Shown here: positions 44,038-47,329 of the stretch, in pieces
Layout of the letters: every line of letters starts with the position of its first letter
Numbering within the stretch: the stretch's first letter is position 1
Source: Dichomitus squalens LYAD-421 SS1
Lineage: Eukaryota; Basidiomycota; Agaricomycetes; Polyporales; Polyporaceae
Assembly (NCBI RefSeq): GCF_000275845.1
Contig: NW_006766884.1
Location: forward strand, 1-64,000
Reading direction: 5' to 3'
DNA length: 64,000 nucleotides
Position numbers and translations under genes: made by a program
Notes under the pieces: generated by a model
The model's database searches: none
What the model was told of the DNA's origin: nothing
Seen by the model: only the letters and a program-made list of their open reading frames with translations

Positions 44038-45874
44038 ATGTCTCTAGATACCCAGGTCAATATGCATGTTGATCCGGGAGACGTGTTCGGTTCTGACGGT
44101 CCCGATTGTTCCTTCCACAGAAACTCCCAGCGTTTCCACCTCTATCTACTGTTGAACACATCATTCTCAAGGAAAAGCAAGGGAACTGCGTTCCAGTATA
44201 CGTCGAGCTCCCTGGCGACTTCCTCACACCATGCGTCGCGTACTTGCGGATAGCGAAGGACTCGAAGTATAGCTTTCTTTTGGAGTCGGTAGTTGCGGGG
44301 GAGAACCTTGCGCGATATAGCTTCGTCGGAGCGGGTGCGTCCTCCATTCAATCCATCTACCACCCTTTCCACCCCGCACTCACGCACAATTGCGTATCAA
44401 GACCCGTTCAAAATCATCCGGGTGGGACCCAATGAAGAGACGACTGGGGACCCGTTGGTCGCGCTGCAGAAGGAGCTGGGGATGTACAAGTATGTAAAGC
44501 TCCCCGAAGTCCCCACATTCACAGGCGGCGCGATCGGATATGTCGGGTACGATTCTATCATGCATTTCGAGTCCAAAACCGCGCGTGTGGTAGAAGACCC
44601 CCTCCGTATTCCCGAGGCGATCTTCATGCTTGTCGACACCCTTCTCATCTACGACCACCTCTACCAAAGCCTGAAGGTCGTCTCGCACGTTTTTTGTCCT
44701 GGGGATGCTGGCCAAGTCAACTTGTCGTTCATCTATCAGACCGCGGTCTCGAAGGCGAGGAGGCTGGCCAAGCTCATCATGAGCACCACGACACCAGAGG
44801 TGTACCAGCAGCCAATCGTACTAGGAAACGAGGCCGTCTCGAACGTCGGAAAGGCGGGATACGAGGGCTTTGTGACGAAGCTGAAGGAGCATATTGTGGC
44901 GGGAGACATCATCCAGGCAGTACCATCGCAACGACTGGCGCGTCCGACCAACCTCCATCCGTTCAACGCATACAGGCATCTACGGCGCATCAACCCGAGT
45001 CCATACATGTTCTACCTCGATTGTGGTCACATACAAATTGTCGGAGCAAGTCCGGAAACGCTGTGCAAGGTAGAGAAGAACAAGGTGTACAACCATGCTA
45101 TTGCTGGTACCATTCGAAGAGGGCAGACACTTGAAGGTGCGCGTGCCTTGTGTCCGTCGCCTTCTGTCATACCCTAATTGACCGTTATTCCAGAGGACGA
45201 GAAGTTAGGTGCAGAGCTTCTCGCGTCGGAGAAGGACAGGGCCGAGCACATCATGCTGGTTGACCTCGCACGGAACGATGTGAACCGCGTGTGCAAGCCG
45301 GAGACGGTGCACGTCGACCATCTGCTCAAGCTTGAGAAGTTCAGCCATGTCATTCACTTGACTTCGCAAGTCTCTGGCGTCCTGAGGGCCGGTAAGACTA
45401 GGTACGCCTTTTCAGGCAAGACAGCTTCTGTCGCCCCTTGTATCTGACGATTACGGTATAGGTTCGACGCGTTCCGATCCATCTTCCCCGCAGGCACGGT
45501 GTCTGGAGCTCCGAAGATTAAGGCCATTGAGCTCATCTACGAGCTTGAGAAGCAGCGCCGAGGCGTTTATGCCGGCGCAGTGGGACGCTTCGACTTCGCC
45601 GACGACGAGATGGACACTTGCATCGCCATTCGTACCATGGTATTCAAGGATGGCATCGCGTATCTACAAGCTGGAGGAGGTATTGTTTACGACAGCGTGG
45701 AAGAGGACGAGTACGTGGAGACATTGAACAAGCTCAAGGGTAACATGAGAGCGCTCGATGTAGCGGAACGTACGTTGTCTCAACTTACCTCCTTTGATGG
45801 AGAACGTGCTGACCACACGGGACCTCGCAGAGTACTGGCACGATATCCAAAATGCGAAGGGTGCGCCGGCATAA
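44038..45874 (+). CDS. Anthranilate synthase component I (tryptophan biosynthesis)
   Basis: Exons 44038-44055, 44121-44334, 44402-45136, 45194-45401, 45462-45769 and 45831-45874 encode 508 aa. It converts chorismate to anthranilate with ammonia from the component II glutamine amidotransferase. Motifs are CVPVYVELPGDFLTP and LLESVVAGENLARYSFVG (feedback-site region). The catalytic core has GGAIGYVGYD, AVPSQRLARPT, GASPETL, AGTIRRG, SEKDRAEHIMLVDLARND, GTVSGAPKIKA and RRGVYAGAVGRFDF. Exon 1 is only 18 nt (MSLDTQ). The gene is convergent with uS2m, 40 bp between stop codons. The part from 45279 onward is repeated exactly at 46348, so this left copy is the only complete one. Confidence 0.96.
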
Positions 45875-46260
45875 TGATGTATTAAAGAACATATTGTAGT
45901 GTACGAGTGGCGATCTATGCTGAGTGTGGCTCCCTGTGCCGTGGCCCCTTCTTGGCTGCCACAAGTGCAGCCTTTGCCTGCTCCTCCTCGTAGAGCGCGA
46001 CACCTTCTCGACCCGCTACGCTGAGAAGTCCCGCGATGAGCTCTGCTGTCCGTGTGCTCTCGTCGTTGGCCGGAATGGGGTACATGACAACCCGAGGGTC
46101 GACGTTCGAGTCGACGATACCGATGGTAGGTACATGCTCGAGAGCGCACTCTCGTATGGCGTGGATGTTGGGGATGGGATTGAGGAAGATGACGAGGTCG
46201 GGGACGACCTGCTCATCCTTCGCAACGTCGGGGCCGAACATGTGGACCCTATTCGTCAGC
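45279..46260. repeat. 982-bp direct repeat, left copy (assembly overlap)
   Basis: This stretch is repeated, apparently without any mismatch, at 46348-47329 (offset 1069). It covers the end of anthranilate synthase and the C-terminal part of uS2m. The left copy ends exactly at the N run and the right copy begins exactly after it. Confidence 0.95.
45915..46260 (-). pseudogene. Partial copy of uS2m gene cut by the gap
   Basis: This encodes the C-terminal 115 residues of mitochondrial ribosomal protein uS2m (HMFGPDVAKDEQ to the stop), identical to the complete gene at 46984-47954. It runs into the N run. It is probably not a real pseudogene but the end of one contig. Confidence 0.85.
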
Positions 46261-46347
46261 NNNNNNNNNNNNNNNNNNNNNNNNNNNNNNNNNNNNNNNN
46301 NNNNNNNNNNNNNNNNNNNNNNNNNNNNNNNNNNNNNNNNNNNNNNN
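46261..46347. other. Assembly gap (87 N)
   Basis: A run of 87 undetermined bases between two identical 982-bp sequences. The natural reading is an unmerged contig overlap whose gap size is not meaningful. Confidence 0.97.
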
Positions 46348-46943
46348 TGTGAACCGCGTGTGCAAGCCGGAGACGGTGCACGTCGACCATCTGCTCAAGC
46401 TTGAGAAGTTCAGCCATGTCATTCACTTGACTTCGCAAGTCTCTGGCGTCCTGAGGGCCGGTAAGACTAGGTACGCCTTTTCAGGCAAGACAGCTTCTGT
46501 CGCCCCTTGTATCTGACGATTACGGTATAGGTTCGACGCGTTCCGATCCATCTTCCCCGCAGGCACGGTGTCTGGAGCTCCGAAGATTAAGGCCATTGAG
46601 CTCATCTACGAGCTTGAGAAGCAGCGCCGAGGCGTTTATGCCGGCGCAGTGGGACGCTTCGACTTCGCCGACGACGAGATGGACACTTGCATCGCCATTC
46701 GTACCATGGTATTCAAGGATGGCATCGCGTATCTACAAGCTGGAGGAGGTATTGTTTACGACAGCGTGGAAGAGGACGAGTACGTGGAGACATTGAACAA
46801 GCTCAAGGGTAACATGAGAGCGCTCGATGTAGCGGAACGTACGTTGTCTCAACTTACCTCCTTTGATGGAGAACGTGCTGACCACACGGGACCTCGCAGA
46901 GTACTGGCACGATATCCAAAATGCGAAGGGTGCGCCGGCATAA
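46348..46943 (+). pseudogene. Duplicated 3' part of anthranilate synthase I after the gap
   Basis: Copies of the end of exon 4 (to 46470), exon 5 (46531-46838) and exon 6 (46900-46943) start inside codons for VNRVCKP. They lack every upstream exon and a promoter. They equal 45279-45874 base for base and are most simply the other side of an unmerged contig overlap. Confidence 0.85.
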
Positions 46944-47329
46944 TGATGTATTAAAGAACATATTGTAGTGTACGAGTGGCGATCTATGCTGAGTGTGGCT
47001 CCCTGTGCCGTGGCCCCTTCTTGGCTGCCACAAGTGCAGCCTTTGCCTGCTCCTCCTCGTAGAGCGCGACACCTTCTCGACCCGCTACGCTGAGAAGTCC
47101 CGCGATGAGCTCTGCTGTCCGTGTGCTCTCGTCGTTGGCCGGAATGGGGTACATGACAACCCGAGGGTCGACGTTCGAGTCGACGATACCGATGGTAGGT
47201 ACATGCTCGAGAGCGCACTCTCGTATGGCGTGGATGTTGGGGATGGGATTGAGGAAGATGACGAGGTCGGGGACGACCTGCTCATCCTTCGCAACGTCGG
47301 GGCCGAACATGTGGACCCTATTCGTCAGC
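46348..47329. repeat. 982-bp direct repeat, right copy (assembly overlap)
   Basis: Right copy of the repeat described at 45279-46260. Encoded peptides on both strands are identical between copies. Confidence 0.95.

What the first reader, a model, noticed from the sequence alone, without database searches (positions are those of the whole stretch)
45279..47329. 982-bp exact direct repeat on both sides of an 87-N gap: unmerged contig overlap
45279-46260 and 46348-47329 are the same sequence (offset 1069). The left copy ends at the first N and the right copy starts at the last N. The left copy completes anthranilate synthase I, the right copy completes uS2m. Collapsing one copy plus the gap gives exactly one intact gene of each, with 40 bp between their stops. 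Any gene count, read depth or duplication claim for this locus would otherwise be wrong.
Basis: seen in the sequence. Interest (0 to 1): 0.75.

Follow-up and report, generated by a model that had tools for sequence, protein, structure and literature searches.

The report
False duplication at an assembly gap
A 982-base stretch that appears twice beside a gap in this fungal genome is almost certainly one real stretch counted twice by the assembly software, apparently because a false join to another scaffold broke the contig there; it is an assembly error, not biology.

Summary

Better evidence came from the genome. The first 190 bases of the repeat occur once more, on scaffold C35, as part of a 191-base tail on the left contig of a 116-N gap; that gap is itself flanked by an exact 839-base overlap. 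The tail begins 1 base from where the window's right-hand contig begins. So the two faults look like one event: a C35/C2 chimeric join broke contigs at both loci, and the ends were extended by less than 1 kb without merging. Such paired overlap gaps are described for Newbler (PMC3528712). Running locus tags, read by eye, put trpE beside uS2m in 5 of 7 fungi, supporting the scaffold order.

The host is a polypore near Dichomitus squalens. Without reads, a real tandem copy or a real C2/C35 exchange is unlikely but not excluded. Low interest; both loci need correction.

The parts
45279..46260 (+). Left copy of the 982-bp overlap: right end of contig C2-left; holds the 3' part of trpE and the 3' part of uS2m (minus strand)
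46261..46347 (.). Assembly gap, 87 N; probably stands for no real sequence (true distance negative)
   Evidence: inference
46348..47329 (+). Right copy of the 982-bp overlap: left end of contig C2-right; identical to the left copy at 982 of 982 bases
45278..45468 (+). Stretch also present as a 191-base tail on scaffold C35 (C35:51775-51965, ending at a 116-N gap); its first base is 1 base before the position at which contig C2-right starts
44106..45874 (+). trpE, anthranilate synthase component I (several exons; continuous through the left copy; start approximate, exon limits placed by eye)
46984..47766 (-). uS2m, mitochondrial ribosomal protein S2 (ORF; true start not settled; intact only through the right copy)
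45915..46260 (-). Truncated uS2m piece in the left copy; would be a false partial gene
46348..46943 (+). Truncated trpE 3' piece in the right copy; would be a false partial gene

Best explanation
The 982-bp repeat is one genomic stretch represented twice, as the overlapping ends of two adjacent contigs left unmerged and separated by a nominal 87-N gap. The break was most likely triggered by a chimeric sequence joining scaffold C35 (just past a uS8 ribosomal protein gene) to C2 inside trpE. At that false branch the assembler could not continue at either locus. Contig ends were then extended past the branch by less than 1 kb (982 bp on C2-left, 839 bp on C35-right, 191 bp of chimeric tail on C35-left, none on C2-right), and small positive gaps were written. 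Shown: the exact overlaps at both loci, the C35/C2 junction in the assembly, and the coincidence of breakpoints. Inferred: the order of assembly steps, and that the junction is a library or assembly chimera rather than a real chromosome junction.
For: Exact 982/982 identity ending at the gap. The only further match to the repeat reported in the 40.35-Mb genome is its first 190 bases at C35:51776-51965, 100% identical. On C35 the sequence runs up to ...GATTGTG, switches to C2 from window position 45278, and stops at a 116-N gap. The right contig there repeats the last 839 bases before the switch and continues differently. C2-right starts at the equivalent of 45279, 1 base from that switch. Microhomology at the switch is 1 base, and between the stretches of the two loci compared (about 1.8-2 kb upstream of the switch on each, and the 839-bp against the 982-bp repeat) the longest shared word is 9-10 bases, so no repeat seen explains the join. 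By rough estimate the tail would fall on this overlap by chance with probability 2e-5, and the starts would agree within 2 bases with probability 0.003. Of 5 N runs seen, the 2 under 200 N have exact overlaps and the 3 of 1500 N or more have none. Running locus tags put trpE next to uS2m in 5 of 7 fungi (by eye), so C2-left to C2-right looks like the ancestral order. Precedent: 23 of 101 Newbler gaps were directly overlapping but unassembled contigs, many caused by a sequence shared between two loci and so occurring in pairs (7 of the 23 unexplained), and Newbler gap sizes were all positive, at least 20 (PMC3528712: passages, sections 15 and 19). A JGI white-rot assembly of the period used 1000-bp shreds, Newbler and gapResolution (PMC3463431, passages); extensions under 1000 bp fit that.
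Against: No reads, mate pairs or depth were available. Sizes of 87 and 116 N are not the floor of 20 that PMC3528712 reports for Newbler; if they were real estimates between the printed contig ends they would argue for a physical second copy (I suppose that they were estimated between contigs that abutted before extension, which is unproven). That paper also names two gaps whose distances fit tandem copies. The two small gaps are one linked event, so they are not independent examples. The tool warns that withheld stretches also read N, so the three larger N runs may not all be assembly gaps. The assembler of this genome is not known to me; the Newbler link is by analogy. A join with 1 base of microhomology needs a real chimeric molecule or read, and a real rearrangement would look the same.
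Confidence: 0.85

Rival explanations
1. Plain unmerged overlap, with no causal link to C35; the C35 tail is an unrelated mis-extension.
For: All features of the window alone. In PMC3528712, 7 of 23 overlap gaps had no known reason.
Against: The tail starts 1 base from the start of C2-right, and the C35 gap is the same kind of overlap gap; independent faults would rarely coincide so closely.
Confidence: 0.06
2. A real, very recent tandem duplication of about 1 kb with a short unsequenced spacer; the assembler stopped at the two edges of the collapsed repeat.
For: Contig ends exactly at both repeat edges are also what a true two-copy repeat gives; outer genes stay intact in that case too; the gap is given as positive and above Newbler's reported floor.
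Against: Zero differences in 982 bases that include introns and spacer; the mirror overlap gap on C35 would need a second recent duplication; trpE and uS2m tags are adjacent in 5 of 7 relatives, though this says nothing about a strain-specific event.
Confidence: 0.04
3. A real reciprocal exchange between C2 and C35 with staggered breaks, present in part of the nuclei: it would duplicate 982 bp at C2 and 839 bp at C35, and its second junction (end of the C2 repeat joined to the start of the C35 repeat) would lie unseen in the gaps.
For: All four contig edges would be explained by two junctions; one junction is visible on C35 with no repeat-mediated overlap found.
Against: The predicted second junction was not found: no further copies of the C2 repeat or of the C35 repeat were reported in the held assembly, which may however lack small contigs; the scaffolds keep what looks like the ancestral order on C2; extension lengths under 1 kb suit read or shred lengths.
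Confidence: 0.04
4. Two haplotypes of a dikaryon assembled side by side, the cause given in PMC2864568 for false duplications in diploid assemblies.
For: Duplicated overlapping contigs of this kind are common in assemblies (PMC2864568, section 6).
Against: No difference in 982 or in 839 bases, where the paper gives a median identity of 98.1% with few above 99.5%.
Confidence: 0.01

Closest known systems
Group A 'overlapping contigs' gaps of a Newbler assembly (PMC3528712)
   Same: Adjacent contigs overlap directly yet were not joined; many such gaps come in pairs that share sequence; the gap size is written as a positive number.
   Different: There the shared sequence is mostly a pair of 500-700-bp homologous copies; here the shared part is a 190-base tail. 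Gap sizes here are 87 and 116, not near 20. The assembler of this genome is not known.
Duplicated overlapping contigs (DOC), false segmental duplications (Kelley and Salzberg 2010, PMC2864568)
   Different: Those were attributed to heterozygosity (median identity 98.1%); here identity is 100% and a chimeric join is the likelier trigger.

Membership tests
Duplicated overlapping contigs (PMC2864568) | Two nearby contigs align to each other at their facing ends | tested here: met
   982/982 in C2, 839/839 in C35 (there the left contig has a further 191-base foreign tail)
Duplicated overlapping contigs (PMC2864568) | Mate pairs more consistent when the contigs are merged | not testable with these tools
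   no reads or mate pairs held
Duplicated overlapping contigs (PMC2864568) | Copies differ slightly because they are two haplotypes | tested here: not met
   no differences; the haplotype cause is therefore not claimed
Newbler overlap gaps, Group A (PMC3528712) | Preceding contig overlaps the following contig directly but is not assembled with it | tested here: met
Newbler overlap gaps, Group A (PMC3528712) | Gaps occur in pairs that share sequence (true of many, not all, in the paper) | tested here: met
   C2 and C35 gaps share 190-192 bases at one breakpoint
Newbler overlap gaps, Group A (PMC3528712) | Gap length given as positive although the contigs overlap | tested here: met
   87 N and 116 N; neither is the reported floor of 20
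Newbler overlap gaps, Group A (PMC3528712) | Assembly made with Newbler | not testable with these tools
   the assembly is unnamed; the D. squalens announcement sought was not held
True tandem duplication | Two physical copies with a real junction between them | not testable with these tools
   the junction would lie in the N gap; no reads
True tandem duplication | Copies show some divergence | tested here: not met
   zero divergence; a very young copy would also fail this

The most novel reading that the evidence does not exclude
The C35/C2 join is real DNA: a reciprocal exchange between two chromosomes in part of the nuclei of the sequenced culture, made by staggered breaks that duplicated 982 bp inside trpE/uS2m and 839 bp at uS8, seen as two broken scaffold positions with one junction captured.
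Probability: 0.04. Interest if true: 0.4.

Novelty: not a real feature. Interest (0 to 1): 0.1.

Why it matters
As an assembly error it matters only for annotation and copy counts: it creates false partial copies of trpE, uS2m and, on C35, uS8, and false segmental duplications. It also shows that a lone look at one gap is not enough: the likely cause sits on another scaffold, and fixing the window alone would leave the chimeric tail on C35 in place.

Tried and rejected
Haplotype duplication was rejected because both overlaps show zero differences. A mobile-element or gene-capture reading of the C35 copy was considered and dropped because the copy ends at a gap, on a contig end that overlaps its neighbour; terminal structures of such an element were not tested. 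No Rfam family matched 44000-48600. The comparison for repeat-mediated joining found only 9-10-base shared words in the stretches compared; the sequence downstream of the switch on C35-right was not compared.

Eight paper searches were made. Searches on chimeric or overlap gaps and on this genome or strain gave no account of its assembly. The announcement of three D. squalens genomes is not held; one D. squalens paper, passages only (PMC8533725), says strain CBS464.89 is a monokaryon, but which strain the window is from was not settled.

Three uS8 exon pieces of 60-61 residues gave no Pfam match, although one of them matches 58 distinct sequences of solved structures, mostly named uS8, S22 or S15a; I name the gene from the latter.

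Full report
What is there. The window has a single N run, 46261-46347. The 982 bases before it and the 982 bases after it are identical with no mismatch. Pfam confirms anthranilate synthase component I (PF04715, PF00425) and ribosomal protein S2 (PF00318).

Host. The window is the first 64 kb of a 2.22-Mb scaffold (C2) of a 40.35-Mb genome in 116 contigs. The best named uS2m hits are polypores. A CAF-1 subunit encoded at 53548-55581 matches a Dichomitus squalens protein best, 92% over 81% of the query, with one exon piece at 69 of 70 residues. I take the host as D. squalens or a close relative; the genome itself is unnamed and the strain unknown.

That collapsing the repeat gives one intact gene of each kind is true but does not discriminate. 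If a stretch running from inside gene A to inside gene B is duplicated in tandem, the outer copies of A and B stay intact and the truncated pieces face each other in the middle, which is exactly the printed arrangement. Other evidence is needed.

The third copy. Searching the whole genome with the repeat gave three places: the two in the window and C35:51776-51965, which matches the first 190 bases at 100%. Of the flanks outside the repeat, 44000-45278 matched only itself; 47330-48600 matched itself and two short pieces at C2:1205234-1205419 (84% and 76%), in what looks by eye like the Hsp70 part of the query. On C35 the match is the end of a contig and stops at a 116-N gap (C35:51966-52081). 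The contig on the other side of that gap begins with an exact copy of the 839 bases that precede the foreign tail (C35:50936-51774 = 52082-52920) and then runs on differently. The overlapped C35 stretch carries 3' exons of a cytosolic uS8 gene (RPS22/RPS15A), named through solved structures; Pfam gave no match to the short exon pieces. So C35 has the same fault as the window, plus a chimeric tail.

One event, not two. The tail copies C2 from 45278 on, with 1 base of microhomology; contig C2-right begins at the equivalent of 45279. By chance the tail would fall on this overlap with probability about 2e-5, and the starts would agree within 2 bases with probability about 0.003; these are rough estimates. 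The simplest account is a branch: some sequence ran from C35 into C2, so at C35 two continuations and at C2 two predecessors were seen, and contigs were cut there. Ends were then carried past the cut by 982 (C2-left), 839 (C35-right), 191 (C35-left, into the chimera) and 0 (C2-right) bases. In the stretches compared the two loci share no word longer than 10 bases, so no repeat seen made the join; a chimeric molecule or read is the likely source.

Other gaps. In C2:1-264000 there are four N runs: 87, 1500, 12784 and 5997 N. Only the first has an overlap. In C35:36801-66700 there is one, 116 N, with an overlap. That makes 2 of 5: both of those under 200 N and none of the larger ones. Since the two are linked, they do not show that unmerged overlaps are general in this assembly; and since withheld stretches also read N, the larger runs may not all be assembly gaps.

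Gene order in relatives. Some records in the protein lists carry locus tags with running numbers; I read them by eye from the 120 rows shown of 710, of 227 and of 8000. Of 7 species with such tags for both proteins, trpE and uS2m are neighbours in 5 (Fibroporia, Antrodiella, Asterophora, Tricholomella, Tephrocybe rancida), 8 apart in Volvariella, and far apart in Athelia. Serpula and Jaapia have JGI draft numbers that give no order and were set aside. For trpE and the CAF-1 gene, 10 of 15 species are exactly four tags apart; the others are 2, 13 and 14 apart and two far apart; Jaapia and Hydnomerulius, with draft numbers, were set aside. This supports C2-left to C2-right as the standard order. 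It cannot exclude a change private to this strain.

Precedent. Kelley and Salzberg (PMC2864568; passages and section 6 read) name this class duplicated overlapping contigs and found by mate pairs that 5,698 of 5,947 in chicken, 13,159 of 13,571 in chimpanzee, 1,094 of 1,366 in cow and 8 of 22 in dog were errors; theirs differ slightly between copies, these do not. A Newbler study (PMC3528712; passages and sections 15 and 19 read) reports 23 of 101 gaps with directly overlapping unassembled contigs, many of them in pairs that share a sequence and 7 unexplained; all Newbler gap sizes were positive, with a minimum of 20. The same paper names two gaps whose distances fit tandem copies, and the 87 and 116 N here are above that minimum: both points count against my reading to some degree. 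A JGI white-rot genome paper (PMC3463431; passages read) describes 1000-bp shreds with 800-bp overlap assembled with Newbler and followed by gapResolution; the extension lengths here, all under 1000, would fit such a pipeline, but that this genome was made that way is inference.

Verdict. An unmerged contig overlap caused by a chimeric C35/C2 join, probability about 0.85, and about 0.9 for an unmerged overlap of any cause. A real tandem copy and a real exchange between C2 and C35 are each about 0.04. It is not a biological feature; both loci should be corrected together.

Noticed in passing
G000 scaffold C35:50936-52920 (L004 4137-6121): Second overlap gap: 839 identical bases on both sides of 116 N, with a 191-base tail of C2 sequence on the left contig; it gives a false partial copy of a uS8 ribosomal protein gene.
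   Followed up: yes
C2:81254-82753: An N run of exactly 1500, while the neighbouring large ones have irregular sizes (12784 and 5997 N); no overlap at its flanks.
   Followed up: partly
window 44106-55581: The neighbourhood trpE, uS2m, Hsp70 (PF00012), CAF-1 subunit looks conserved in Agaricomycetes: trpE and CAF-1 tags are exactly four apart in 10 of 15 species with running tags; Hsp70 was not checked in relatives.
   Followed up: partly
window 5192-5227 and 51286-51338: Two short exact direct repeats (30 bases at offset 6; 26 bases at offset 27) found in the repeat scan; they look like ordinary short tandem repeats.
   Followed up: no
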